A DNA stretch of 64,000 bases from Hyphomicrobiaceae bacterium. GTDB lineage: Bacteria > Pseudomonadota > Alphaproteobacteria > Rhizobiales > Hyphomicrobiaceae. The stretch lies in the NCBI GenBank assembly GCA_022844275.1, contig JALHMB010000003.1, positions 186,001-250,000 on the forward strand, read 5' to 3'. A model generated the notes under the pieces. That model had not been told where the DNA came from. It did not search any database and saw only the letters and a list, made by a program, of their open reading frames with translations. Numbering within the stretch: position 1 is the stretch's first letter; every line of letters begins with the position of its first letter. A program made the position numbers and the translations under genes. Shown piece after piece: positions 31,823 to 43,903 of this stretch.

Positions 31823-32947
31823 TCAAGGCACCAGGATCATCCGCACTGTGCCGCCGTCCGCGAGCTTATCGAAGCCCTCGTTGATCTCCTCGAGCTTGAT
31901 GCGCTCGCTCATCAAGCGATCCACGGGCAGAAGTCCCTGCTGATAGAGCGAGATGAAGCGCGGGATATCGCGCGAAGGGATGCACGATCCGACGTAGCTG
32001 CCTTTGACGGTGCGTTCCTCGGCGACAAGGTGCGTGCCCGGCAGCGGCATGGTGTGTGTCGGGTGCGGCAGGCTCGCAGTGACAGTGGTACCGCCGCGCT
32101 TGGTGATCTTGTAGGCGAGCTCGAGCGCTTTGATGGAGCTTGCCATCTCGAAGGCGAAATCGACGCCGCCGCCAGTGAGATCCTTCACCTGCTCGACGAC
32201 GTTGGGATCGCGCGCGTTGACCGTGTGCGTCGCGCCGAGCTGCTTGGCGAGCTTCAGCTTGTCATCGAGCATGTCGATGGCGACGACCTGCCGGCAACCG
32301 GAGAGTTTCGCGCCGAGCATGGACATGAGGCCGACGCCACCGAGACCGACGACCGCGGCGGTCGTGCCCGGTGGCACCTTCGCCGTGTTGATGACGGCGC
32401 CCGCGCCCGTGATGACCGCGCAGCCGAAGAGCGCTGCTTCCTCAAAGGGCAGGGACTTGTCGATTTTCACGACACTGCAGCGCGAGACGACGGCATATTC
32501 CGAGAACGCTGACACGCCGACGTGGTGATAGACGGTCTTGCCGTTGCGCGAGAGGCGCGTCACGTCGTTGAGCAGCTTGCCGGCGCTGTTCGCCTTGAAG
32601 CCCGGCTCGCAGAGTGCGGGGCGACCTTCCTGGCAGGGCGCGCAGCGGCCGCAGTTCGGCACGAACACGAGAATGACGTGATCGCCGACGGCGAGATCCT
32701 TCACGCCGGGGCCGAGTTCCATGACCTCGCCGGCTGCCTCATGGCCGAGCACCATGGGCAGCGGGCGCGGACGGTCGCCGTTGATGGTCGAGAGGTCGGA
32801 GTGGCAGAGGCCAGCGGCGCGGATGCGCACCAGGATCTCGTCCTCGCCCGGCGGATCGAGATCCAGCGTCTCGATCACCATGGGCTTGGACTGGGCATAG
32901 GGGCGCGGCTTTTCCATCTCGTGGATGACGGCGGCGCGGGTTTTCAT
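31823..32947 (-). CDS. zinc-dependent alcohol dehydrogenase
   Basis: A 374-residue MDR-superfamily alcohol dehydrogenase. Catalytic-zinc ligands are Cys48 (GLCHSD), His69 (GHEAAGE) and Cys176 (FGCAV). The structural-zinc cysteines are 99, 102, 105 and 113 (NCGRCAPCQEGRPALCEPG). The NAD site is GLGGVG at 201-206, with an acidic residue after beta-2 (AIDMLDD) pointing to NAD rather than NADP. It oxidises an alcohol to an aldehyde or the reverse; the closest general group is the class III-like, FrmA-type enzymes. I chose the ATG at 32947 (AGGGAG upstream) over a 92-codon longer frame. Separate unit, with its own terminator. Confidence 0.92.
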   Translation of the reverse strand: MKTRAAVIHEMEKPRPYAQSKPMVIETLDLDPPGEDEILVRIRAAGLCHSDLSTINGDRPRPLPMVLGHEAAGEVMELGPGVKDLAVGDHVILVFVPNCGRCAPCQEGRPALCEPGFKANSAGKLLNDVTRLSRNGKTVYHHVGVSAFSEYAVVSRCSVVKIDKSLPFEEAALFGCAVITGAGAVINTAKVPPGTTAAVVGLGGVGLMSMLGAKLSGCRQVVAIDMLDDKLKLAKQLGATHTVNARDPNVVEQVKDLTGGGVDFAFEMASSIKALELAYKITKRGGTTVTASLPHPTHTMPLPGTHLVAEERTVKGSYVGSCIPSRDIPRFISLYQQGLLPVDRLMSERIKLEEINEGFDKLADGGTVRMILVP

Positions 32948-33097
32948 GGGGCGGCTCCCTGGGCGTTCGGTGTCTGTTACGGCGGATGATAGCCGCCTGT
33001 GGCCAGCCGGCAACCGGTACTTGTGGCATTGGCGCCGGCACGGCATGATGCCCGCGCTGGTGGGGTCTATTTGGACCATTACTTGGGGGTAGCAATC

Positions 33098-33337
33098 ATG
33101 CGGATGATGAAGATCGGACTGGCATTGGCGTTCGCGCTCGGTATGAGCGCACCGGTAATGGCACAGAGCCAGACAAAGGCGCCGGTGGTAAAGGCCGGCA
33201 AGGGCGAGAAGGTCTGTCGCCATACGTTCCCGAGCGGCGAGAAGCGCGCCTGGGTGTGCAAGCAGGAGGAACCCTGCTGCGCCTGGGACCTCATCAACTA
33301 CGTGAAGTGCGGCTCGACAATCACGAAGTGCCTCTAG
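33098..33337 (+). CDS. small secreted six-cysteine protein
   Basis: A 79-residue protein with a signal peptide (residues 1-23, cut after MAQ) and a mature part of about 56 residues. It has exactly six cysteines: 40, 54, 60, 61, 71 and 78, spaced C-x13-C-x5-CC-x9-C-x6-C. The C-C-CC-C-C order is that of knottin-type cystine-knot peptides, although the first loop is long. No family is recognised. I chose the ATG at 33098, preceded by GGGGGT, since the longer frame lacks a leader. The TAG stop codon is part of the CTAG end of palindromic repeat A1, so the repeat defines its C-terminus. Confidence 0.75.
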   Translation: MRMMKIGLALAFALGMSAPVMAQSQTKAPVVKAGKGEKVCRHTFPSGEKRAWVCKQEEPCCAWDLINYVKCGSTITKCL

Positions 33338-33412
33338 TGTCCTGATGCCGAAGTTCGCCCCACCCCGATGCGAGGTCAGCGAGCAAACTTCGGCATCCGG
33401 TCAGGACACTAG
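33334..33412. repeat. palindromic element A, copy 1
   Basis: A 79-bp near-perfect inverted repeat bounded by CTAG at both ends. The left arm begins CTAGTGTCCTGA and continues TGCCGAAGTTCGCC; the right arm is its complement with a CCGG insertion and one change. The CTAG/TA ends suit an IS630-type miniature element. Together with element B1 (14 bases away) it forms a composite repeated in opposite orientation at 41710-41876. Confidence 0.85.
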
Positions 33413-33426
33413 AGTTCTCTTGCCTG

Positions 33427-33501
33427 CTCGTGTGATTCAGATCGAGAAATTCGCTCGCACAGTATTGCGAGCCTTGGCGAATTTCTCGATCATCACACGA
33501 G
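33427..33501. repeat. palindromic element B, copy 1
   Basis: A 75-bp inverted repeat. The left arm is CTCGTGTGATTCAGATCGAG plus AAATTCGC; the right arm is its complement without the CA insertion. Here the ends are CTCG/CGAG where copy 2 has CTAG/CTAG, both arms having changed together. It ends 43 bases before the atuA start. Confidence 0.85.
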
Positions 33502-33544
33502 GCGCACTTACGCTGAAACTGGCACCACATATCGGGAGGATGCA

Positions 33545-34873
33545 GTGCTGAGGCTCGGATGTGGCGCCGGCTTTTCGTCGGATCGGCTGGAGCCGGCGAT
33601 CGATCTCGCCGAAAAGGGCGCGCTCGACTATCTCGTGTTCGAGACGATCGGCGAGCGCACGCTGGCGTTCGGTCATCGCGATCGTCAGCTCGATCCGAAG
33701 CGCGGCTATAATCCGCAGCTCGCGGCGCGGATGCGCGGCGTGCTCGGCCACTGCAAGCGCAATGGCACGCGCATCGTCACGAACATGGGCGTCGCGAATG
33801 TTGCAGCGGCAGCGGATGTCGTCGTCGATGTCGCGCGGTCGCAGGGCCTCAGCGGCCTGACGGTGGCGGCCATCGAGGGCGATGATGTCTCCGATCTCAT
33901 CGGCCCCGATACCGTCCTCTTCGACAATCACAACAAGACGGTCGCCGAAATCGGGCGCCCCGTTGTCGGCGCCAATGTCTATCTCGGCATTGACGCCATA
34001 ATTCCCGGCCTCGAGAGCGGCGCCGATGTCGTGATCACTGGGCGCGTCGCCGATCCCTCGCTCTTTCTCTCGCCGCTCGTGCATCGCTACGGCTGGAAGC
34101 GCGACGACTGGCAGAAGCTCGGCCAGGGCACACTCGTCGGGCATCTTCTGGAATGCGGCATGCAGATCACGGGCGGCTACTTCGCCGATCCCGGCCGCAA
34201 GGATGTGCCGCGTTTAGCCGAGTGCGGCTACCCGATCGCCGAAGTGGATGAGCGCGGAAACTGCGTCATTACCAAGCTCGCCGATGCCGGCGGCATGGTG
34301 ACACCACGGACGGTCAAAGAGCAGCTCATGTACGAGGTGCATGATCCGGCGGCCTATCTCACGCCGGATGTAACGGCCGATTTCAGCCGCGCCACCGTGC
34401 AGGAAGCCGGACGCGACCGCGTGGCGGTCGCGAACGGCAGCGGTCACAAGCGCCCCGACAAACTCAAGGTCACGGTTGGCTTCGACGGCGGCTTCTTCGG
34501 CGAGGCGGGCGTGAGCTACGCAGGCCCCAATGCGACGGCACGCGCGGCGCTCGCACGCGACATACTGCGCGAACGCCTCGCACACCGCCCTGGCTTCGAG
34601 GCGCTGCGCATCGATCTCATCGGCATCAATTCGCTGCATGCGACGGCGCACGGCCCCCGCGCGGAGAGCGCCGACGTGCGCGTGCACGCCGCCATGCGCT
34701 CGGCCACTCGCGACGACGTCGCGACGATGCTCTGGGAGGTCGAGTCGCTACTGTGCTGCGGGCCGGCGGCTGGCGGTGGCTATCGCGGCCAGATCACGCC
34801 GAGCGTCATCACACATTCGGCGCTCATCGACCGCGGCGCAGTGCGCTCCAGCGTGAAGGTGCTCCGCGCATGA
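33545..34873 (+). CDS. AtuA-like protein (DUF1446), large part
   Basis: A 442-residue protein of the acyclic terpene utilisation AtuA family. Characteristic stretches are LRLGCGAGFSSDRLEPAIDLAE at the start, DYLVFETIGERTLA, GADVVITGRVADPSLFLSPL, and the Gly-rich CGPAAGGGYRGQITPS near the end. AtuA is required for citronellol/geraniol catabolism in Pseudomonas, but most homologues occur outside that pathway and the reaction is not established. Start is a GTG at 33545 with GGAGGA just upstream; an ATG five bases earlier meets a stop after three codons. It overlaps the next gene by 4 bases (ATGA). Confidence 0.88.
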   Translation: MLRLGCGAGFSSDRLEPAIDLAEKGALDYLVFETIGERTLAFGHRDRQLDPKRGYNPQLAARMRGVLGHCKRNGTRIVTNMGVANVAAAADVVVDVARSQGLSGLTVAAIEGDDVSDLIGPDTVLFDNHNKTVAEIGRPVVGANVYLGIDAIIPGLESGADVVITGRVADPSLFLSPLVHRYGWKRDDWQKLGQGTLVGHLLECGMQITGGYFADPGRKDVPRLAECGYPIAEVDERGNCVITKLADAGGMVTPRTVKEQLMYEVHDPAAYLTPDVTADFSRATVQEAGRDRVAVANGSGHKRPDKLKVTVGFDGGFFGEAGVSYAGPNATARAALARDILRERLAHRPGFEALRIDLIGINSLHATAHGPRAESADVRVHAAMRSATRDDVATMLWEVESLLCCGPAAGGGYRGQITPSVITHSALIDRGAVRSSVKVLRA

Positions 34874-35205
34874 GCCGCCACATCAAGCTGCACGAGATCG
34901 CGCATGCGCGCGCCGGCGACAAGGGCAACACGTCGAACGTATCCGTCTGGGTGTATGATCCGGGTGACTATCCTCTGCTCAAGGAGCAGCTCACGCCCGA
35001 GCGCATCAAGGCAGCCTATCCGGCCCTCATCCAGGGCGCCGTGAAGCGCTATACCCTCGATCATCTGCACGGCCTGAACTTCGTTATGCAGGATGCCCTC
35101 GAAGGCGGCGTCAATACCTCGCTGGGCCTCGACAGCCACGGCAAATCGTGGAGTTTCCTCGTCCTGGACCTGGATGTAGAGGTACCCGACAACCGAGCGG
35201 GATAA
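34870..35205 (+). CDS. AtuA-like C-terminal ferredoxin-fold protein
   Basis: A 111-residue protein matching the small C-terminal domain found fused to AtuA in longer homologues: IKLHEIAHARAGDKGNTSNVSVWVYDP, later VKRYTLDHLHGLNFVMQDALEGGVNTSLGLDSHGKS. The Ala-Gly-Asp-Lys-Gly stretch and the final Leu-Gly-Leu-Asp-x-His-Gly-Lys are strongly conserved in this group. The ATG at 34870 lies inside the end of the large gene, so the two halves are coupled and probably form a complex. Catalytic role unknown. Confidence 0.87.
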   Translation: MSRHIKLHEIAHARAGDKGNTSNVSVWVYDPGDYPLLKEQLTPERIKAAYPALIQGAVKRYTLDHLHGLNFVMQDALEGGVNTSLGLDSHGKSWSFLVLDLDVEVPDNRAG

Positions 35206-35351
35206 GGCCCTCACAATCTCATAACTCGTGGGATGGGCGGGACCAGATGGCGCAGCCCGATCATGAACCTGGACATACTTGTGTCGTAGTGCTGATGAAC
35301 ATCGGCGCCGGCTGGCCGGCGAGCCACCCCACCGCACCGCTGGAGCACTGA

Positions 35352-35990
35352 ATGAAGCAAGCAGGCAGGATCATCGCCGCCCTCTGGCTTGTCGTCGCAG
35401 CCGCCTCGGCAGCGCGGGCGGACAGCAATGCGGCCGACTGCCTGAGCGACGACAACGAGCGGCGCATCCTCGGCTGCTCCATCATTATCGAAAATCCCGC
35501 GACGCCGCCCCTCGAGCGCAGCAACGCGCTTGCCATCCGCGGTCTCGCGCTGGCCATCAAGGGCCTGCTCGACCGCGCAATCCACGACTACGACGCCGCC
35601 CTCGCCATCAATCCCAACTCGCCCTCAGCTCTCAATAACCGCGCGTGGGCCTATTTCCGTTCCGGTCGCGGCCCCGATGGACTACCCGATGTCGAGCGCT
35701 CGCTCCTGCTCAATCCCGACAGCGAGCACTCCTGGGACACACGTGCCCACATCCGCCAGCTCATGGGCAACTCCGAGGGGGCAATCCGCGACTACGAGAT
35801 GGCCGTCCACCTTGGTGGCGAGCGCATGGTCAAGCTCTACCAGTGCGGCCTCGCCGAGCGCGGGCTGTACCGTGGGCAGATGGACGGCATCTATAATGCC
35901 GAGACCAAGACGGCACTGCACACCTGCGCGCGCGATCGAGATTGCGATCCCCTGCCGGCCGACGAGCAGTGCAGGCTGCCGACATCGTAA
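35352..35990 (+). CDS. secreted TPR protein with peptidoglycan-binding-like end
   Basis: A 212-residue protein with a signal peptide (about residues 1-23, cut near ARADS). It has at least three TPR units (ALAIRGLALAIKGLLDRAIHDYDAALAINP, the next starting SALNNRAWAYFRSGR, then SWDTRAHIRQLMGNSEGAIRDYEMAVHLG). The C-terminal segment LAERGLYRGQMDGIYNAETKTAL resembles the peptidoglycan-binding domain 1 helix set. Several cysteines flank the domains. It is likely periplasmic and could scaffold a cell-wall complex. No partner gene is adjacent. Repeat copy 4 follows 6 bases after the stop. Confidence 0.8.
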   Translation: MKQAGRIIAALWLVVAAASAARADSNAADCLSDDNERRILGCSIIIENPATPPLERSNALAIRGLALAIKGLLDRAIHDYDAALAINPNSPSALNNRAWAYFRSGRGPDGLPDVERSLLLNPDSEHSWDTRAHIRQLMGNSEGAIRDYEMAVHLGGERMVKLYQCGLAERGLYRGQMDGIYNAETKTALHTCARDRDCDPLPADEQCRLPTS

Positions 35991-35996
35991 ACGACG

Positions 35997-36060
35997 TCGC
36001 GCCTCCAGCGCGAGCGGCTGACTTTACAGCGGCCCGCAACACCCAGAACCGCTGTCTTTC
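35997..36060 (+). repeat. dispersed palindromic repeat family R, copy 4
   Basis: Six bases after the TPR gene stop codon. It has TCGCGCC-TCC-AGCGCGA, then a diverged middle (GCGGCTG..CAGCGGCC..ACACCCAGAACC) and the GCTGTCTTTCT end. The right arm has one mismatch (A for G), and the middle hairpin is largely lost. Confidence 0.6.
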
Positions 36061-36183
36061 TCTGAAATTTTGAAGATCGCGCTTGGATGCAGGTCGACCC
36101 TGCGCCATGAGCCCTCGCGCGCTCCGCGTGGGGAGTGATAGGCTCGCTGATCCGCCAGCATCACGATCTGGAGCCGTGAGCCT

Positions 36184-37545
36184 ATGTCCAAGTCCCCGAA
36201 AGCCGCCACCGGTGCGATTACCGCCACCGTCGAGAAGACGCTCGACGCCGCAGAAGCGGCCAACAAGAAGCTCCACGCGCTCGCCCAGATCACACGCGAG
36301 AGCGCCCTCGCCGAGGCGCGGCTCGCCGATGTACGCACGTCCGAAGGCGCGGCACACGGGCTGCTCCACGGAATGCCGGTCGGCATTAAGGACATTGCCG
36401 ATGTCGTGGGGCTCGTCTCCGGCTGCGGATCGCTGACACGCAAGCAGGCTGAGCCGGCGACGCGGGACGCGCACGTCGTGACCAAGCTGCGCACCGCCGG
36501 CGCCATCGTCGTCGGCAAGACGCACACGGTCGAATATGCCTTCGGCGGCTACGGCACGAACGAGACCGTCGGCACGCCGTGGAACCCATGGGATCTCAAT
36601 GTGCACCGCATTCCCGGCGGCTCATCGAGTGGCACGGGCTCGATCGTCGGCGCGGGCGTACTGCCGGGCGGACTTGGCACCGACACGGGCGGATCGGTGC
36701 GCATTCCAGCCGCGCTCTGCGGCTGTGTCGGCCTCAAGACCTCGATCGGGCTCATCGGCCGCTCGGGCATCGCGCCGCTCTCGCAGACGCTCGATACGGC
36801 CGGTCCGCTCGCGACGGACGTGACGACTACGGCACGCATGTTCGCTGCCATGCTCGGGCATGATCCCGAGGATCCATCGACCGAGGATTTCCGCGCGATC
36901 GATCCGCTGCGCGATCTCGAAAAGGGTGTAGCAGGTCTGCGCATCGGCCGCGTCGTCGATGAGGACCTGGGCGCGATCACAAGTGACGAGGTAAAGGCCG
37001 ATCTCGCCAAGGCCGCCGCGACGCTCGAGAAGCTCGGCGCGCGCGTAGAACCCTTCAAGATGCCCCAGTCCTTCGACAGTTTCACGCGATCGACCGGCAT
37101 CATCATCGCATCCGAGGGCTATGCGAACTGGCGCCGTCATGTCGACGATGCGAAGTCGGGTATGGCCAATCCGATCCGCACGCGCTTTCTCGGTGGCAAG
37201 TCGATCTCCGCCGCCGACTATCTCGATGTGATGGCGGAGCGGAAGAAGTCGATCGACAGCTTCCTCTCGGCCATGGACCGGCTCGATGCCATCATCCTGC
37301 CGACCATTCCGTTCCCGGCGATCCCGGTCGCCGAGGTCGACGAGACGAAGTCGCCCATGGCCCATTTCACTCGCTGGGCAAACCTCCTCGCGCTGGCAGG
37401 CCTTGCGATCCCGACGGCGCTCAGCAAGAGCAAGTTGCCCATGAGCCTGCAGATCGTCGTCCGTCGCTTCGACGACGCGCTGGCGCTGCGCATCGGTCGT
37501 GCGTTTGAGAAATCGCGTGGTGCCTTCCCGGCGCCGAAGCTCTGA
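36184..37545 (+). CDS. amidase signature enzyme
   Basis: A 453-residue amidase (GatA/AmiE-type signature family) that hydrolyses carboxamides through a Ser-cisSer-Lys triad. The residues are Lys69 (VGIKD), Ser147 (PGGSSSGTGS) and Ser171 (GTDTGGSVRIPA), at the normal spacing of 24 between the serines. It is not the tRNA amidotransferase GatA, since gatB/gatC are absent and the C-terminus is short. The substrate is unknown. It starts about 190 bases after the TPR gene and 11 bases before the next gene, so it is likely cotranscribed with the hydrolase and CoA genes downstream. Confidence 0.92.
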   Translation: MSKSPKAATGAITATVEKTLDAAEAANKKLHALAQITRESALAEARLADVRTSEGAAHGLLHGMPVGIKDIADVVGLVSGCGSLTRKQAEPATRDAHVVTKLRTAGAIVVGKTHTVEYAFGGYGTNETVGTPWNPWDLNVHRIPGGSSSGTGSIVGAGVLPGGLGTDTGGSVRIPAALCGCVGLKTSIGLIGRSGIAPLSQTLDTAGPLATDVTTTARMFAAMLGHDPEDPSTEDFRAIDPLRDLEKGVAGLRIGRVVDEDLGAITSDEVKADLAKAAATLEKLGARVEPFKMPQSFDSFTRSTGIIIASEGYANWRRHVDDAKSGMANPIRTRFLGGKSISAADYLDVMAERKKSIDSFLSAMDRLDAIILPTIPFPAIPVAEVDETKSPMAHFTRWANLLALAGLAIPTALSKSKLPMSLQIVVRRFDDALALRIGRAFEKSRGAFPAPKL

Positions 37546-37556
37546 GGCGAGGCGAG

Positions 37557-38627
37557 ATGACCGCCACAACCGACGAAGTCCTGATCCGCGTCGAAGGCAA
37601 GGCCGGGCGCATTACGCTGAACCGGCCGAAGGCGCTCAATGCTCTGACGCTCGGCATGGTCCGCGCCATTTGGCCGGCGTTGCTCGCGTGGAAGGACGAT
37701 CCGGCCGTCGAGCTCGTCATCCTGGACGGTGCCGGCGAGCGCGGGCTGTGTGCTGGCGGCGATGTCCGTTGGCTCTATGACTCACGCACGCGAGGGATCG
37801 ATGACGCGCTGGCCTTCTGGCGCGAAGAGTATCCGCTCAATGCACTGATCCACCGCTATCCCAAACCCCTCGTGCCTATCATGGACGGCATTGTCATGGG
37901 CGGCGGCATCGGACTTTCCGCGCACGTGCAGGGCGGCACGCGCATCGTTACCGAGCGCTCGCAGCTTGCTATGCCGGAAACCACCATCGGGCTCATTCCC
38001 GACGTCGGCGGCACATGGTTGCTCGGACGCGCGCCCGATTCATTCGGCGAGTATCTCGGCCTCGTCGGCGAGCGCATGCATGGCGCGGGTACGATCTTTT
38101 CCGGCTTCGCCGATGCTTTCGTGCAGTCGGCAAAGCTCGATGAGCTGCGCACGGCCCTATGCGAAGCACGCGCAGCAGATGTCAACGGCGTGATCGCGCG
38201 CTTCAGCGAGCCCCCGCCGCATTCAAATCTCGCCGAGCGCGCGGAAGAAGTCGGGCGTACGTTCTCGAAGCCCACGGTGCCGGCCATCATCGAGGCGCTG
38301 GCGCAGGAAGAGAGCGAGTGGGCGCTCAAGACACGCGAGGCGCTGCTGACGCGCTCGCCGAAGGCGCTCGCGGCGACGCTTGCCGCGGTCCGGCGATCGC
38401 GCAAACTCGGATCGCTCGAGGAAGCACTCAACGTCGAGCTTCGACTTTGCATTCACCTCTTTGAGGACGGCGAATTCTCGGAAGGCGTACGCGCGCTGCT
38501 CGTCGACAAGGACAAGAACCCTCGCTGGAAACCGCCGACGCTCGCCGAACTCGACGACGCGGTGGTGGAGGCGTTGTTTGCACCCCTGCCGGCCGAGCAG
38601 GAGCTGGGCTTGCGAGCACCTGCCTGA
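37557..38627 (+). CDS. 3-hydroxyisobutyryl-CoA hydrolase-like protein
   Basis: A 356-residue crotonase-fold protein of the HIBYL-CoA hydrolase group, longer than plain enoyl-CoA hydratases. Landmarks are GLCAGGDVRWLYD (oxyanion loop), PLVPIMDGIVMGGGIGLSAH, and METTIGLIPDVGGT-type PETTIGLIPDVGGTWLL. A C-terminal region also follows, with EFSEGVRALLVDKDKNPRW. The HIBCH hallmark FSEGVRA-x-L-x-DKD-x-P-x-W is intact. In valine catabolism it releases 3-hydroxyisobutyrate. Ribosome-binding GAGGCGAGG precedes the ATG. It sits between the amidase and a CoA-transferase. Confidence 0.92.
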   Translation: MTATTDEVLIRVEGKAGRITLNRPKALNALTLGMVRAIWPALLAWKDDPAVELVILDGAGERGLCAGGDVRWLYDSRTRGIDDALAFWREEYPLNALIHRYPKPLVPIMDGIVMGGGIGLSAHVQGGTRIVTERSQLAMPETTIGLIPDVGGTWLLGRAPDSFGEYLGLVGERMHGAGTIFSGFADAFVQSAKLDELRTALCEARAADVNGVIARFSEPPPHSNLAERAEEVGRTFSKPTVPAIIEALAQEESEWALKTREALLTRSPKALAATLAAVRRSRKLGSLEEALNVELRLCIHLFEDGEFSEGVRALLVDKDKNPRWKPPTLAELDDAVVEALFAPLPAEQELGLRAPA

Positions 38628-38674
38628 TCGGGCAGGCTTGGATAAACGATTTAAGAACAATACCCGGAGGCATC

Positions 38675-39913
38675 ATGTCACAGAATAAGCGCCGCGGCCC
38701 TCTCACGGGAATGCGCGTCATCGACCTCTCACACGTCATGGCGGGGCCGACCTCGGCGCGCATGCTCGCCGACATGGGGGCCGACGTCATCAAGGTCGAG
38801 AAGGCCGATGGCGGCGACGACACGCGGCGGATGTTGCCGCCCGACATCAAGGGCGAGCCGGCGGCTTACATGATGATGAACCGCAACAAGCGCGGCATCG
38901 TTCTCGATCTCAAGAAGCCCGCGGGGCGCGCGGCTTTGAAGCGTCTGCTGAAGGACGCCGACGTTCTCATCGAGAACTATCGCCACGATACGCTCGACAA
39001 GCTCGGCCTCGGCTACGAGGCCCTGCACAAGGAATTTCCGGGCCTCATATACTGCGCCGTCTCGGGCTTCGGCCGCAGCGGACCCTACGCCGATCAGGGC
39101 GGTTACGACCTCATTGCACAAGGCATGTCGGGCCTCATGGCCATCACGGGCGAAGGTCCGGGACGACCGCCGGTCAAAGTCGGCTCGCCGGCGTGCGACA
39201 TCACGGCCGGCATCATCGCTGCGATGGCCATGTGCGCCGCCTATGCCCACAAACTCAAAACCGGCGAAGGGCAGTTCGTCGATACCTCGCTGCTCGAGGC
39301 CGGCATCACGCTGACGTACTGGCAGTCGGCAATCGCGTTGGCGACAGGTGTGTCACCGGGGCCCATGGGCTCGCGCCATCCGCTCAACGGACCTTATCAG
39401 GCCTTCGAGACCAGCGACGGCTACATCAACGTCGGGGCATCGAACCAGAAGATGTATCCCATGCTGTGCGATGTCCTCGGCTGTCCCGAGCTCGGCAAGG
39501 ATCCGCGCTTCCTCACCGGGCACGACCGCATGGCCAACCTCGATACGTTGATCGACTTGCTCAACGCGCGCTTCCGCAAGCAGGGTACCGCGCATTGGTT
39601 GGAGAAGCTTGAGGCCGTCGGCATACCGTGCGGTCCAGTTCTCTCCATCAACGAGATGCTCGTGCATCCGCAGACGCGTGCGCGCGACATGGTCGTCGCC
39701 GTGAACCATCCCGTTGCCGGCAAGGTCGAGACGATCGGGATGCCGGCGAAGTTCTCGGGCACACCAACGGAGATCGCTATGCCGGCGCCCCTGTATGGCC
39801 AGCACACGCGCGAAGTGCTGAGCGAGGCCGGTTTCACGCCAGCCGAGATCAATGCGCTGCTCGCCGAAGGAGCTGCCAAAGAGACCGAGCTGCCCAAGGT
39901 CGCAGCCGAATAG
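38675..39913 (+). CDS. CaiB/BaiF family III CoA-transferase
   Basis: A 412-residue CoA-transferase. It begins GMRVIDLSHVMAGPTSARMLADMGADVIKVEK and contains NRNKRGIVLDLKKPAGRAALKRL. Asp145 (GGYDLIAQGMSGLM) is the catalytic acid. It has the usual small-domain segments GSRHPLNGPYQAFETSDGYINVG and AVGIPCGPVLSINEM. It is distinct from the transferase at 24879, which lacks the long NKRGIVLDLKK stretch. An AGGAGG-like CCGGAGG precedes the ATG. It precedes the MDR oxidoreductase by 11 bases and likely activates the acid used in this block. Confidence 0.93.
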   Translation: MSQNKRRGPLTGMRVIDLSHVMAGPTSARMLADMGADVIKVEKADGGDDTRRMLPPDIKGEPAAYMMMNRNKRGIVLDLKKPAGRAALKRLLKDADVLIENYRHDTLDKLGLGYEALHKEFPGLIYCAVSGFGRSGPYADQGGYDLIAQGMSGLMAITGEGPGRPPVKVGSPACDITAGIIAAMAMCAAYAHKLKTGEGQFVDTSLLEAGITLTYWQSAIALATGVSPGPMGSRHPLNGPYQAFETSDGYINVGASNQKMYPMLCDVLGCPELGKDPRFLTGHDRMANLDTLIDLLNARFRKQGTAHWLEKLEAVGIPCGPVLSINEMLVHPQTRARDMVVAVNHPVAGKVETIGMPAKFSGTPTEIAMPAPLYGQHTREVLSEAGFTPAEINALLAEGAAKETELPKVAAE

Positions 39914-39924
39914 CGGAGGCTTTC

Positions 39925-40929
39925 ATGGCCACGAACCGCCAAGTCATTCTCGCCAAGCGCCCGTCGCCGGGCCTCGTCACACCGGATGTATTCACCGTCA
40001 AGGATGCACCGCTCGCCGAGCCAGACGAAGGCGAAGTGCGCGTGAAGATCGCGTATGTCTCGCTCGATCCAGCCATGCGCGGCTGGATCAACGAGGGGCG
40101 TTCCTACGTGCCGCCGGTCGCGATCGGTGGTGTGATGCGCTCGTTCTCCGTCGGCATTGTCGATGCCTCGAAGCATCCCGCCTTCAATGTCGGCGATGCC
40201 GTGCAGGGCATGATGGGCGTGCAGCAGTACGCGATCTCGGACGGCAAAGGCCTCGTGAAGGTCGATCCTTCGGCGGCCCCGCTCGAACGCTGGGTCGGCG
40301 GGCTCGGCATGCCCGGCTGGACGGCCTATTTCGGGCTCCTCGAAGTGGGTCAGCCCAAGGCCGGAGAGACGGTCGTCGTCTCCGCGGCTTCGGGCGCCGT
40401 CGGCTCGATCGTCGGCCAGATTGCCAAGATCAAGAGGTGCCGCGCGGTCGGCATTGCCGGCGGCACGGAGAAATGCCGCTACGTCGTCGATGAACTCGGC
40501 TTCGATGCCTGCATCGACTACAAGAGCGGCAATCTCGCCGAGCAGCTCAAAGCCGCCTGCCCTCAAGGCATCGACGTCAACTTCGAGAATGTCGGCGGCG
40601 AGATCTTCGATACGATCCTGATGCAGATGAACGTGCACGGGCGCATCGCGCTCTGCGGTCTCATCTCCGCGTACAATGCGACGAAGATGCCCGAAGGTCC
40701 GAAGAACCTGCGCGCCGTGCTCACACAGCGGCTGACCATGCGCGGTCTCATCGTGCTGGATTGGGCCGATCGCGTACCCGAGGCGATCGCGCAGCTCGGG
40801 GCCTGGCACCGCGAGGGCAAACTGAAAATCCGAGAGGATGTGCGTACTGGCGGCCTCGAAAGCTTTACCGACACCCTCAATCTGCTCTACACCGGCGGCA
40901 ACAACGGCAAGCTCGTCCTCAAGGTCTGA
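39925..40929 (+). CDS. NADP-dependent MDR oxidoreductase (CurA/LTB4DH-like)
   Basis: A 334-residue zinc-free medium-chain reductase of the leukotriene B4 dehydrogenase/CurA type. It has VSLDPAMRGWINEGRSYVPPVAIGGVMR near the N-terminus (the Arg-Gly-Trp pattern of the group) and the cofactor loop SAASGAVGSIVGQIAK. The late CGLISAYN segment completes the fold. Relatives reduce the double bond of alpha,beta-unsaturated ketones with NADPH. The ATG at 39925 has CGGAGG 7 bases upstream; the longer frame runs back into the transferase gene and is rejected. It is followed 3 bases later by the phosphatase. Confidence 0.93.
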   Translation: MATNRQVILAKRPSPGLVTPDVFTVKDAPLAEPDEGEVRVKIAYVSLDPAMRGWINEGRSYVPPVAIGGVMRSFSVGIVDASKHPAFNVGDAVQGMMGVQQYAISDGKGLVKVDPSAAPLERWVGGLGMPGWTAYFGLLEVGQPKAGETVVVSAASGAVGSIVGQIAKIKRCRAVGIAGGTEKCRYVVDELGFDACIDYKSGNLAEQLKAACPQGIDVNFENVGGEIFDTILMQMNVHGRIALCGLISAYNATKMPEGPKNLRAVLTQRLTMRGLIVLDWADRVPEAIAQLGAWHREGKLKIREDVRTGGLESFTDTLNLLYTGGNNGKLVLKV

Positions 40930-40932
40930 TCC

Positions 40933-41526
40933 GTGCTCAAGGCTGGTATTACGCTTTATTTCGTCCGCCATGGCGAGACGGACTGGAATGCGGTGCGCCG
41001 CTATCAGGGCCAGACCGACACGCCGCTCAATGACAAGGGTCGCGGGCAGGCCGCGCGCAACGGCCGCGAGCTCGGCCGCATTCTCGACGGCAAGGCAGAG
41101 AGCTTCGATTTCGTCGCGAGCCCGCTCTCGCGCACATCCGAGACCATGCAGATCATCCGCCGCGAGATGGGCCTCGACCCCGATGCCTTCGCCCGTGACG
41201 ACCTGCTGAAGGAGATCAACTTCGGGCATTGGGAAGGCCAGATCTGGGACGATCTGCCAAATAACGACCCCGAGGAGTTCGCTGCCCGCAAGGCGGATCC
41301 CTATCGTTGGCGGCCTCGCAACGGCGAGAGCTACGAGGATCTAGCGAGGCGGGTCGGAAACTGGATTGCGAGCCTGGAACGGGATACGGTCGCCGTGTCG
41401 CATGGGGGCGTCAGCCGGGTCGTGCGCGGGCACATTCTCGGCCTCGACTGGGGGGAGATCCATGCCCTCGACGTGCCCCAGGACAAGATCTTGCGGCTCA
41501 GGCGTGGCGAGCAGGCTTGGCTATAA
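40933..41526 (+). CDS. histidine phosphatase family protein
   Basis: A 197-residue phosphoglycerate-mutase-like phosphatase. The catalytic motif is VRHGETDWN at about residues 11-19. Family signatures QTDTPLNDKGRGQA, ASPLSRTSETMQII and the second catalytic His in VAVSHGGVSRVVRGHILG are present. Starting at a GTG (40933) 3 bases after the oxidoreductase stop, it is probably cotranscribed. The substrate is unknown; close relatives act on sugar phosphates or nucleotides. It is the last gene before the B2/A2 palindromic composite. Confidence 0.92.
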   Translation: MLKAGITLYFVRHGETDWNAVRRYQGQTDTPLNDKGRGQAARNGRELGRILDGKAESFDFVASPLSRTSETMQIIRREMGLDPDAFARDDLLKEINFGHWEGQIWDDLPNNDPEEFAARKADPYRWRPRNGESYEDLARRVGNWIASLERDTVAVSHGGVSRVVRGHILGLDWGEIHALDVPQDKILRLRRGEQAWL

Positions 41527-41709
41527 GCCGGCTGCGACCATTGCGCCCCTCTGTCGCCCTGCCGCCACGGTGGGTAACGCGAACGAGCCACGGCCCTAAT
41601 TGCGGCGGATTGTGGTAGTCAACGGACGCATAAGGGGGGTCCCCAGGCAGCGCGTCCGTTGCATCTGCGGATTTACCGTCCGCTGCGTCACTCGCGAACC
41701 GGAGCCGGA

Positions 41710-41785
41710 CTAGTGTGATGATCGAGAAATTCGCCAGATCAGGCCGCGCGGTACCGAGCGAATTTCTCGATCTGAATCACACTAG
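41710..41785. repeat. palindromic element B, copy 2
   Basis: A 76-bp inverted repeat with CTAG at both ends. The left arm is CTAGTGTGATGATCGAG plus AAATTCGCC, and the right arm is its complement with a CA insertion. It is inverted relative to copy 1 (the arm carrying the CA insertion is on the other side) and the loops share little sequence. Confidence 0.87.
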
Positions 41786-41798
41786 CAAGATTATGATT

Positions 41799-41876
41799 CT
41801 AGTGTCCCTTTTGCTTCCGAAGTTCGCTCGGGACACCAGCATCGAGATCGGGCGAACTTCGGAAGCGGGACACTAG
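41799..41876. repeat. palindromic element A, copy 2
   Basis: A 78-bp inverted repeat with CTAG at both ends. Arms are CTAGTGTCCC..CTTCCGAAGTTCGC and the complement. Where copy 1 has TGCCGAAG in both arms this copy has TTCCGAAG, a paired change that keeps the stem. The second CTAG is followed directly by the lolC ATG, so the element supplies the ribosome-binding region of that gene. Confidence 0.87.
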
Positions 41877-43163
41877 ATGATGACGACCACATCGGGCGCC
41901 GCCAGCGTCGACACGCGCCCCTTTGCTCCGTTCGAGTGGCTGCTCGCGCGCCGCTATCTCAGGGCACGGCGCAAGGAAGGCTTTATCTCCGTCATCGCCG
42001 GCTTCTCGTTCATCGGCATCATGCTCGGCGTCGCGACGCTGATCATTGTCATGGCTGTCATGAACGGCTTTCGCAGTGAGCTCATCCAGAAGATCCTCGG
42101 CGTCAACGGCCACGTGATCGTCTATCGCATCGCCGATCCCTTTACGGACTACGACGAGGCGACCGCACGCCTCTCGCAGGTGCCCGGCGTCAAGGCCGTC
42201 CTGCCGCTCATCGAGGGGCAGGCCATGATCACCTCGAGCTCGGTATCGCTCGGCGGCCTCATCCGCGGTGTGAGCGAAGGCGCCCTGCGCCAGATGCCGC
42301 TTGTCGCAGACAATGTGCGCTACGGCACGCTGGATAACTTCGACAACAGCGAGTCCCTGGCCATCGGCATCCGGCTCGCCAACATGCTGCGCGTCACGGC
42401 CGGCGACGCCATTACGCTCGTCTCGCCGCGCGGAGCCGCGACACCTTTCGGCACGGCGCCGCGGATCAAGCGCTACAACATAGCGGCCATCTTCGAGCTC
42501 GGCATGTCCGAGTACGACAAGGCCATGATCTTCATGCCGCTGAAGGAGGCGCAGCGCTATTTCTCGCGCCCAGAGCAGGTCGACGTGATCGAGGTGCTGC
42601 TGGAAGAGCCCGAGAACGTCGAGCAGATTTTGGGGCCGTTGCAGGCCGCCGGCGGCGATACGCTGCACTTCACGGACTGGCGCAAACGCAACGAGACGTT
42701 CTTCACGGTGCTCCAGGTCGAGCGCAATGTGATGTTCATCATCCTGTCGCTGATCGTGCTGGTGGCGGCGCTCAACATCATCTCCGGCCTCATGATGCTG
42801 GTGAAAGACAAGGGCCGCGACATCGCCATCCTGCGCACCATGGGCGCGACGAAAGGTGCGATGATGCGCGTCTTCCTGATCACCGGCGCCTCGATCGGCA
42901 TTGTAGGCACCATCGCTGGGCTCATTCTCGGCATCGTTTTCTGCTGGAATATCGAGGGCATACGTCAGCTCGTGCAGCGCATTACCGGCACGACGCTGAT
43001 GGATCCGACAGTCTATTACCTCTCGCGCATGCCCGCCGAGATCGATGTTCGCGAGACGACGGCGATCGTGATCATGGCGCTCGTGCTATCCGTTCTCGCA
43101 ACGCTCTATCCGTCGTGGCGCGCCTCGCGCCTCGATCCGGTCGAAGCGCTCCGCTACGAGTGA
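41877..43163 (+). CDS. lolC: lipoprotein-releasing ABC permease LolC/E
   Basis: A 428-residue FtsX-type membrane protein. The N-terminal segment PFEWLLARRYLRARRKEGFISVIAGFSFIGIMLGVATLIIVMAVMNGFR leads into a periplasmic domain of about 230 residues. Three C-terminal membrane helices follow, with the conserved AILRTMGATKGAMMRVF and the coupling ASRLDPVEALRYE tail. LolC/E with LolD extracts outer-membrane lipoproteins to LolA. Alphaproteobacteria have a single LolC/E-type permease. The ATG at 41877 directly follows element A2; GGGA in the element, 6 bases upstream, is the only visible ribosome-binding site. The quoted segment is longer than a short motif but spans residues 18-66 of the chain. 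Confidence 0.94.
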   Translation: MMTTTSGAASVDTRPFAPFEWLLARRYLRARRKEGFISVIAGFSFIGIMLGVATLIIVMAVMNGFRSELIQKILGVNGHVIVYRIADPFTDYDEATARLSQVPGVKAVLPLIEGQAMITSSSVSLGGLIRGVSEGALRQMPLVADNVRYGTLDNFDNSESLAIGIRLANMLRVTAGDAITLVSPRGAATPFGTAPRIKRYNIAAIFELGMSEYDKAMIFMPLKEAQRYFSRPEQVDVIEVLLEEPENVEQILGPLQAAGGDTLHFTDWRKRNETFFTVLQVERNVMFIILSLIVLVAALNIISGLMMLVKDKGRDIAILRTMGATKGAMMRVFLITGASIGIVGTIAGLILGIVFCWNIEGIRQLVQRITGTTLMDPTVYYLSRMPAEIDVRETTAIVIMALVLSVLATLYPSWRASRLDPVEALRYE

Positions 43164-43171
43164 GGCAACCC

Positions 43172-43903
43172 GTGCAAGACTTCACATCCGAGCGCGGCGA
43201 GCCTTTCGAGACGGCTGTCCTCCAGCTTGTCGACCTTCGGCGCACCTTCCACCAGGGCTCACGCCGCATCGACGTGCTGAGCGGCGCCTCGGCCGTGCTG
43301 AGGGGCGGCGAGGCCGTTGCCCTGGTGGGCCCCTCGGGCGCCGGCAAGTCCACGCTCCTGCACGTTGCCGGGCTGCTGGAGACACCGGACAGCGGCCAGG
43401 TGATCGTGTCCGGCCATGACTGCGCGCGCATGAACGACGATGCGCGTACACGCGTCCGGCGTGCGCAGATGGGTTTCATCTACCAGTTCCACCAACTCCT
43501 GCCCGAGTTCTCGGCCGTCGAGAACGTGGCTATGCCCCAGCTCATCCAGGGCCGATCGAAACGCGAGGCTCACGCGCGCGCGACGGAACTGCTGACATCG
43601 CTCGGTCTTGGCGATCGCCTCGAACACCGACCGGCTGAACTATCGGGCGGCGAGCAGCAGCGGACGGCGATCGCCCGCGCGCTCGCCAATACGCCACGTC
43701 TCCTGCTCGCCGACGAGCCGACAGGCAATCTCGACCCTCGGACGGCCGATGTGGTCTTCGAGGAGTTCATCGAGCTCATCCGGGTGAAGCGCGTCGCGGC
43801 TCTCATCGCAACCCACAATCTCGAGCTTGCGGCACGCATGGATCGCGTCCTGCGCATGGAAGGCGGACAGCTCATTGAGCTCGAGCCGCAGAGCCTGACC
43901 TGA
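43172..43903 (+). CDS. lolD: lipoprotein-releasing ABC ATPase LolD
   Basis: A 243-residue ATP-binding subunit of the Lol transporter. Walker A is GPSGAGKST (about residue 52), Q-loop FIYQFHQLLPEFSAVENVAMP, signature [15 protein letters not shown] and Walker [13 protein letters not shown]. The FHQLLPEF stretch is typical of LolD rather than MacB. Start is a GTG at 43172, 8 bases after the lolC stop, so the two genes are translationally linked. In many relatives dnaE follows; here a non-coding 660-base stretch and rpsT follow instead. Confidence 0.95.
   Translation: MQDFTSERGEPFETAVLQLVDLRRTFHQGSRRIDVLSGASAVLRGGEAVALVGPSGAGKSTLLHVAGLLETPDSGQVIVSGHDCARMNDDARTRVRRAQMGFIYQFHQLLPEFSAVENVAMPQLIQGRSKREAHARATELLTSLGLGDRLEHRPAELSGGEQQRTAIARALANTPRLLLADEPTGNLDPRTADVVFEEFIELIRVKRVAALIATHNLELAARMDRVLRMEGGQLIELEPQSLT

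What the first reader, a model, noticed from the sequence alone, without database searches (positions are those of the whole stretch)
33334..33501. Composite two-hairpin palindromic element, seen twice
Element A (79 bp) and element B (75 bp) sit 14 bases apart here. The same pair occurs at 41710-41876 in reverse order and orientation with a 13-base spacer. Each hairpin is a near-perfect inverted repeat and most ends are CTAG, so the flanks of the GTGTCC or GTGTGAT terminal repeats carry TA. Established knowledge: IS630/Tc1-mariner elements target TA, IS630 prefers CTAG. Inference: these are IS630-related miniature elements that travel as one composite. I know of no named family.
Basis: partly seen in the sequence, partly recalled or inferred. 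Interest (0 to 1): 0.62.

Follow-up and report, generated by a model that had tools for sequence, protein, structure and literature searches.

The report
Two-hairpin IS630-type mobile DNA repeat
A 167-base piece of DNA made of two hairpins is scattered about 50 times through this bacterium's genome and through many of its relatives; it looks like a gene-less passenger that was spread by IS630-type jumping genes, with an unusual doubled layout of its ends.

Summary
In detail: both copies fold as two hairpins (z -10.7, -9.6). The A-spacer-B unit has 40 full-length places in this genome and occurs in 20 of 60 genomes searched, all 20 among 36 same-family ones. A and B are seldom apart: all 46 A and all 44 B hairpins listed for this genome have a partner, one truncated, one weak; one A alone exists. 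Relatives show sites without the unit, so it inserts as one piece; TA is visible at 6 of 14 such sites. The IS630 idea is supported: alphaproteobacterial IS630 ends match A (up to 23/26) and B (up to 21/26). The odd feature: the inner arm of each hairpin repeats the end with 3-6 extra bases between tip and core, in 134 of 136 A and 130 of 136 B. I infer that only outer ends are cut, which keeps A and B together. This genome has no IS630 over cut-off and no exact autonomous partner was found. Verdict: a new, structurally unusual IS630-type MITE family.

The parts
33334..33412 (+). hairpin A of copy 1 (outer arm first; inner arm carries extra bases between tip and core)
33413..33426 (+). spacer of copy 1 (14 nt)
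33427..33501 (+). hairpin B of copy 1 (inner arm first, with TCA insert; outer arm last)
33334..33337 (+). outer left CTAG; its TAG is the stop codon of the ORF 32999-33337; three relatives without the unit read GTAA here
41710..41785 (-). hairpin B of copy 2
41786..41798 (-). spacer of copy 2 (13 nt)
41799..41876 (-). hairpin A of copy 2; ends directly before the ATG (41877) of a MacB/FtsX-type permease ORF

Best explanation
The unit is a miniature, gene-less IS630-family (Tc1/mariner superfamily) transposon that moves as one ~165-bp piece. Its two outermost arms are the working terminal inverted repeats; in the closest IS630 elements found, the A outer arm resembles the end downstream of the transposase gene and the B outer arm the upstream end. 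Each end has been doubled into a hairpin by a mirrored inner copy, in which the CTAGTGT tip lies 3-6 bases further from the recognition core. SHOWN: dispersal, co-occurrence of A and B, presence/absence between relatives, match of the outer arms to IS630 ends, the inner-arm shift, covariation of the two arms. INFERRED: that an IS630 transposase supplied in trans moves it by cut and paste into TA, that the shifted inner ends bind but are not cut correctly, and that this is why A and B seldom come apart. The transposase that spread the copies in this genome is not there now, or was not found.
For: Empty sites: 14 loci (13 full units, one B-only) where both flanks align in a relative with -6 to 8 bases between them, by extrapolation of the aligned flanks; 6 of the 14 show TA there (CTAG twice, CTAC, GTAA, TA, TTA) and one is ambiguous, against 15 TA per kb in flanking DNA. 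At two loci (G003:C5, place 52411 of the joined stretch, and L015) the base right of the right-hand TA is that of the empty site, so it is not part of the unit. IS630 ends: 23/26 to A and 21/26 to B in G006, 21/26 A and 18/26 B in G029; 22/26 A and 19/26 B in Komagataeibacter, 21/26 A and 19/26 B in Bradyrhizobium CB82, 20/26 and 20/26 in Sinorhizobium. Of the 8 IS630 elements with both ends read, the upstream end is more B-like in 6, tied in 1, more A-like in 1; the downstream end is more A-like in 5, tied in 2, more B-like in 1. 17 of 257,392 windows in the IS630 loci (L236-L282, the G006 loci left out) reach 20/26: 13 distinct IS630 ends, 3 of these fetched twice, and 1 A hairpin; random expectation about 0.02 (4.1e-8 per comparison). 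Outer arms have the tip-to-core spacing of these IS630 ends; inner arms are longer in 134 of 136 A and 130 of 136 B hairpins. Tandem IS630 copies in G006 and tandem units in BRH_c36 share one CTAG.
Against: This genome has no DDE_3 match (that control search rang in only 3 of 14 genomes) and only weak NF033545 matches below cut-off (best 44.6 bits); 12 of the 20 unit-bearing family genomes have no IS630 over cut-off, while 5 genomes without the unit do. None of the IS630 ends read carries the GTGTGAT tip of B. At 7 of 14 comparable sites no TA is visible in the relative; at 41710 three relatives read CC or CG. The upstream-B, downstream-A assignment fails in more distant IS630: of 8 further elements (6 genomes) with both ends found, the upstream end is more A-like in 6 and more B-like in 2. 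The inner-arm asymmetry could be one founder event inherited by all copies. Single hairpins occur: one full A alone in this genome (C1:383862-383939) and about nine other single or truncated hairpins in all fetched sequence.
Confidence: 0.76

Rival explanations
1. A and B are two separate hairpin MITEs of the same IS630 subgroup that once landed 13 bases apart and have since been copied as a compound; each could still move alone.
For: Each hairpin by itself has two mirrored IS630-like ends with CTAG-type feet at all four places. At one locus this genome has A+B, G003 has A only and G002 neither; a B-only place lies in G003 (L198), and A stands alone at C1:383862-383939 of this genome.
Against: Inner ends are shifted by 3-6 bases in nearly all parsed copies, the spacer is 13-14 nt in 132 of 136, and single hairpins are few beside about 50 units in this genome. 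The single-hairpin cases can also be deletions between CTAGs.
Confidence: 0.16
2. REPIN-like element: inverted pairs of hairpins recognised as single strands and moved by a RAYT/Y1 transposase.
For: Hairpins with conserved bulges, arranged as an inverted pair; dimers of palindromes are typical of REPs (PMC3733652, passages seen).
Against: No Y1_Tnp (PF01797) match in this genome, though the control search rang in 6 of 14 genomes; feet are CTAG-type, not GTAG/CGTC; TA/CTAG at 6 of 14 empty sites; arms match IS630 ends.
Confidence: 0.03
3. The hairpins are kept by the host as RNA or DNA structures (terminator, processing site, CcrM-methylation site), and mobility is past history.
For: The arms covary: 17 both-side changes in 8 of 25 A pairs and 11 in 5 of 25 B pairs, 0 of 500 shuffles as high. 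GANTC sites 2.35 per unit against 1.2 per kb in flanks.
Against: Relatives lack the unit at the same place, no Rfam match over 32000-43500, and only 3 of 40 lie between convergent genes in a rough frame-based call, not what terminators would show. Arm-to-arm correction during hairpin formation would also give covariation.
Confidence: 0.12
4. IS5-type element with a 4-bp CTAG (YTAR) duplication instead of TA.
For: Ends are CTAG in 38 of 40 (left) and 26 of 40 (right); two empty sites read CTAG once.
Against: Right ends CTAC/CTAA occur in 5 of 40; at two loci the right-hand base is that of the empty site; the arm sequences match the ends of elements that carry an IS630 transposase gene.
Confidence: 0.04

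Closest known systems
IS630-family MITEs, e.g. RUP of Streptococcus pneumoniae (107 bp, 108 copies, IS630-Spn1)
   Same: Gene-less, intergenic, ends like an IS630, TA target, thought to be moved in trans (PMC2229807, passages seen).
   Different: RUP is described there as one short unit; here two hairpins with shifted inner arms form one unit. RUP's proposed IS is named from the same species; here no partner was found in the same genome.
ISY100 / IS630 proper (mechanism)
   Same: 24-bp imperfect inverted repeats probably suffice in cis; TA target duplicated; cut exactly at 3' ends (PMC2170065, abstract and passages seen).
   Different: ISY100 has single, not doubled, ends.
Sleeping Beauty-type IR/DR ends of Tc1/mariner (recalled, no call)
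   Same: Two transposase-binding sites per end, inner one not the cut site.
   Different: There the inner site is a direct repeat far inside; here it is inverted and forms a hairpin.
REPIN / REP dimers
   Same: Pairs of palindromes in fixed orientation, some with conserved spacers (PMC3733652, passages seen).
   Different: No GTAG tag, no Y1 match in this genome, longer stems, TA/CTAG-type insertion.
RIME of Rhizobium and CIR of Caulobacter (recalled; the CIR paper PMC166474 is not held)
   Same: Alphaproteobacterial intergenic repeats with large palindromes; CIRs carry GANTC.
   Different: No sequence comparison could be made here.

Membership tests
IS630-family MITE | short, no transposase gene, many dispersed copies | tested here: met
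   ~167 bp; 40 full-length places in this genome
IS630-family MITE | termini match those of an IS630 element with a transposase gene | tested here: met
   up to 23/26 (A) and 21/26 (B) with elements in G006, G029 and named plasmids; no exact partner
IS630-family MITE | insertion at TA with TA duplication | tested here: inconclusive
   TA visible in 6 of 14 comparable empty sites, one more ambiguous; 41710 reads CC/CG in relatives
IS630-family MITE | presence/absence at orthologous sites | tested here: met
   14 loci
IS630-family MITE | IS630 transposase in the same genome | tested here: not met
   none over cut-off in G000; 8 of 20 unit-bearing family genomes have one. Not a strict requirement: the source may be lost
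IS630-family MITE | mobilised by an IS630 transposase in experiment | not testable with these tools
   needs a bench assay
REP / REPIN | GTAG (or CGTC) tag and RAYT/Y1 transposase | tested here: not met
   PF01797 0 matches in G000; feet are CTAG-type in the 40 aligned copies
IS5-type MITE (CTAG duplication) | 4-bp CTAG/YTAR duplication | tested here: inconclusive
   5 of 40 right ends CTAC/CTAA and two loci keep the base of the empty site, against it; two empty sites read CTAG once, which fits either; no IS5 transposase was searched for
Caulobacter CIR / Rhizobium RIME | sequence similarity to those repeats | not tested
   sequences not at hand; CIR paper not held

The most novel reading that the evidence does not exclude
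A previously unnamed transposon design: each end of the mobile unit is a hairpin of one working IS630 end and one mirrored copy whose tip is out of register by 3-6 bases. The extra, uncuttable binding sites hold the unit together and perhaps help it outcompete the IS for transposase. The design has persisted through a bacterial family while the core sequences changed with different IS630 partners.
Probability: 0.35. Interest if true: 0.6.

Novelty: new variant of a known kind. Interest (0 to 1): 0.42.

Why it matters
It adds a well-populated natural series (155 distinct full copies collected here from part of the genomes) in which one can read how transposon ends may be doubled and one copy disabled by register. 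It offers a simple test of why compound MITEs stay together. It also supplies a repeat family for annotating Hyphomicrobium-type genomes.

Tried and rejected
RAYT/Y1 transposase and DDE_3 in this genome: no match. Rfam over 32000-43500: no match. Phage records: no match. Plasmid records: one weak match, 57% of the query at 73.5% identity, Agrobacterium sp. T29. IS630 proteins in 397 genomes of the order gave 29 listed places; 23 of them were screened for ends and one, L269; best was 19/26 to A, so no closer partner. First nhmmer run gave no output because of a broken pipe, repeated; first arm-length script parsed 1 of 155 units, repaired, where 19 of 155 units were still not parsed and are left out of the counts. 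MAFFT pair alignments of empty sites were partly misplaced, so junctions were read. The end screens demanded TA, so an end with CA in its place (L268, 21/26 to A) appeared only. Literature: searches listed no paper that, by title or abstract start, names this repeat; only open-licence full texts were searched.

Full report
WHAT IS THERE. The window lies in an unnamed 6.08-Mb genome (G000:C3:186001-250000). Copy 1 is A 33334-33412, spacer 14 nt, B 33427-33501. Copy 2 is the same unit on the other strand, 41710-41876. Both fold as two independent hairpins, z -10.7 and -9.6 against 200 shuffles.

HOW COMMON AND HOW TIED. The first copy finds 40 full-length places in its own genome. Among 60 genomes including its own, 20 have matches, all within the 36 same-family genomes and none in 24 genomes of other families of the order. 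With separate covariance models for A and B the listing for this genome has 46 A rows and 44 B rows (the listing is capped at 150 rows over three genomes, and the raw totals are not used because they include reverse-strand matches of the palindromes). 42 A rows have a listed B row at the usual distance; of the other four, 597275 is a full unit, and 348495, 130513 and 453402 have B (at 453402 B lacks its first half). Of the two B rows without a listed A, 219427 is copy 1 itself and 162028 has a weak A (10.2 bits) with both CTAGTGTCC tips. Two more units, below the listing, are at C1:212185 and C6:27458, so at least 50 units are here. Against this: one full A stands alone at C1:383862-383939. 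In all sequence fetched by then, a crude pairing gave 170 A-B pairs (places fetched twice counted twice) and 45 unpaired rows; I read 24 of these as the halves of 12 diverged units, 6 as another hairpin family, 4 as IS630 ends and 1 as an A whose B is diverged, which leaves 10 single or truncated hairpins.

IT MOVES, OR MOVED. In G002, G003 and G004 the flanks of both window copies align with the unit missing. Over the material fetched, 14 loci have the unit (one, 70921, B only) in one genome and, in another, flanks with -6 to 8 bases between them (the gap is extrapolated where the BLAST pieces stop short of the junction). Dropped: one locus with 27 bases, L024/G003 220799 and L010/L084, where both sides hold a unit, the G003 side of L032, and the G003 alignment of copy 2 (-21). 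Six of the 14 empty sites show TA at the junction: CTAG (L048; 314782 of the joined G003 stretch), CTAC (197066), TA (52411), TTA (L015, with seven further bases unexplained) and GTAA (copy 1). One (309298) is ambiguous. The other seven do not: CCAG (L032), CC/CG (copy 2), CGAG (L031), single bases (278262, 313740, L041), and one with a poor flank (70921). TA occurs 15 times per kb in flanking DNA, so six of 14 is more than chance; but the duplication is not shown for every site. At L032's place this genome has A+B, G003 has A alone and G002 has neither: either stepwise gain, or loss of B by recombination between CTAGs.

WHOSE ENDS ARE THEY. This genome has no DDE_3, no Y1 and no IS630 over the NCBIfam cut-off. 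But 13 of 36 family genomes do: 8 of the 20 with the unit and 5 of the 16 without. The tandem IS630 pair in G006 ends in CTAGTGTCCTGATTCCGAAGTTTTCC downstream and CTAGTGTCCTGATCGATAAATTTCCC upstream of the gene, 23/26 to the A outer consensus and 21/26 to the B outer consensus. IS630 elements on plasmids of Bradyrhizobium sp. CB82, Komagataeibacter oboediens and a Sinorhizobium have a similar pair of ends. Among the 8 elements with both ends read, upstream is more B-like in 6, tied in 1 and more A-like in 1; downstream is more A-like in 5, tied in 2 and more B-like in 1. The Rhodovastum IS630 (L277) has GATCGCGAAATT at both ends, the core of the A hairpins of another subfamily seen in Hyphomicrobium SB8. 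A wider search of 397 genomes gave more CTAG-flanked IS630, several with GAATCTGAAGTTCG-like downstream ends, but no closer partner (23 of 29 listed places screened). There the upstream-B rule does not hold: of 8 loci (6 genomes) with both ends found, upstream is more A-like in 6 and more B-like in 2, and downstream is more A-like in 7 and more B-like in 1. So the link of A to the downstream end is firmer than that of B to the upstream end. None of the ends read has B's GTGTGAT tip.

THE ODD FEATURE. In the outer arms the CTAGTGT tip and the core are spaced as in the IS630 ends. In the inner arms 3-6 bases are added (AAAA-type in A, TCA in B). Of 155 distinct full units 136 could be parsed: the inner arm is longer in 134 A and 130 B hairpins, equal in 1 and 6, and the outer arm is longer in 1 A and no B. 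The spacer is 13 nt in 122, 14 in 10, other in 4. Copies share ancestry, so these are not 136 independent events; but the feature is also seen in subfamilies with different cores (by eye). The arms also change together: 17 cells with both-side changes in 8 of 25 A pairs, 11 in 5 of 25 B pairs, 0 of 500 shuffles as high (that control does not remove relatedness).

MECHANISM. For ISY100, a bacterial IS630-family element, purified transposase inserts into TA, cuts exactly at the 3' ends, and the 24-bp imperfect ends probably suffice in cis (PMC2170065, abstract and passages). If the transposase measures the cut from its bound core, an end with 3-6 extra bases would be bound but cut wrongly or not at all. 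That would make the outer pair the only productive ends and explain why A and B stay together; this step is inference. Why the inner arms are kept complementary is open: correction between arms when the hairpin forms, extra transposase binding, or a host use.

WHAT KIND. It works like an IS630-type MITE, and three defining features were tested and met (short gene-less repeat, IS630-like termini, presence/absence). TA duplication is inconclusive, a resident transposase is not met (not a strict requirement), and movement was not testable. RUP is the closest precedent (PMC2229807, passages). I found no paper naming this family in the listings. New variant of a known kind.

Noticed in passing
L193:19069-19109, L198:11801-11850, L205:13462-13502, L211:1553-1593, L216:15544-15584, L220:9486-9526: A second hairpin repeat family with ends like CTAAAGCAAC...GTTGCTTTAG and a GAAATTCGC-type core, in G000, G002 and G003; perhaps another IS630-type MITE.
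   Followed up: no
units of G000 (L009-L048): GANTC (the CcrM methylation motif, recalled) occurs 2.35 times per unit against 1.2 per kb in flanks; the B insert TCA makes one. Methylation control of transposition is a possibility.
   Followed up: partly
L114:617-951, L124:1-496: Head-to-tail tandem units sharing one CTAG in MAG BRH_c36.
   Followed up: partly
L235:1366-3710: Two identical IS630 copies in tandem sharing one CTAG in G006.
   Followed up: partly
L315:263-340 (G000:C1:383862-383939): A full A hairpin without B, about 1 kb from a complete unit (C1:382754).
   Followed up: partly
G000:C3:309836-309913: CTAGTGTCC tips 78 bp apart without a hairpin core, directly after an ATGAGC; perhaps chance or an exapted end.
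   Followed up: no
window 32999-33337: The 112-aa ORF ends on the TAG of the inserted unit; three relatives end on TAA at the same codon.
   Followed up: partly
G000 loci L009-L048: Rough frame-based context: 29 tandem, 8 divergent, 3 convergent gene pairs.
   Followed up: partly
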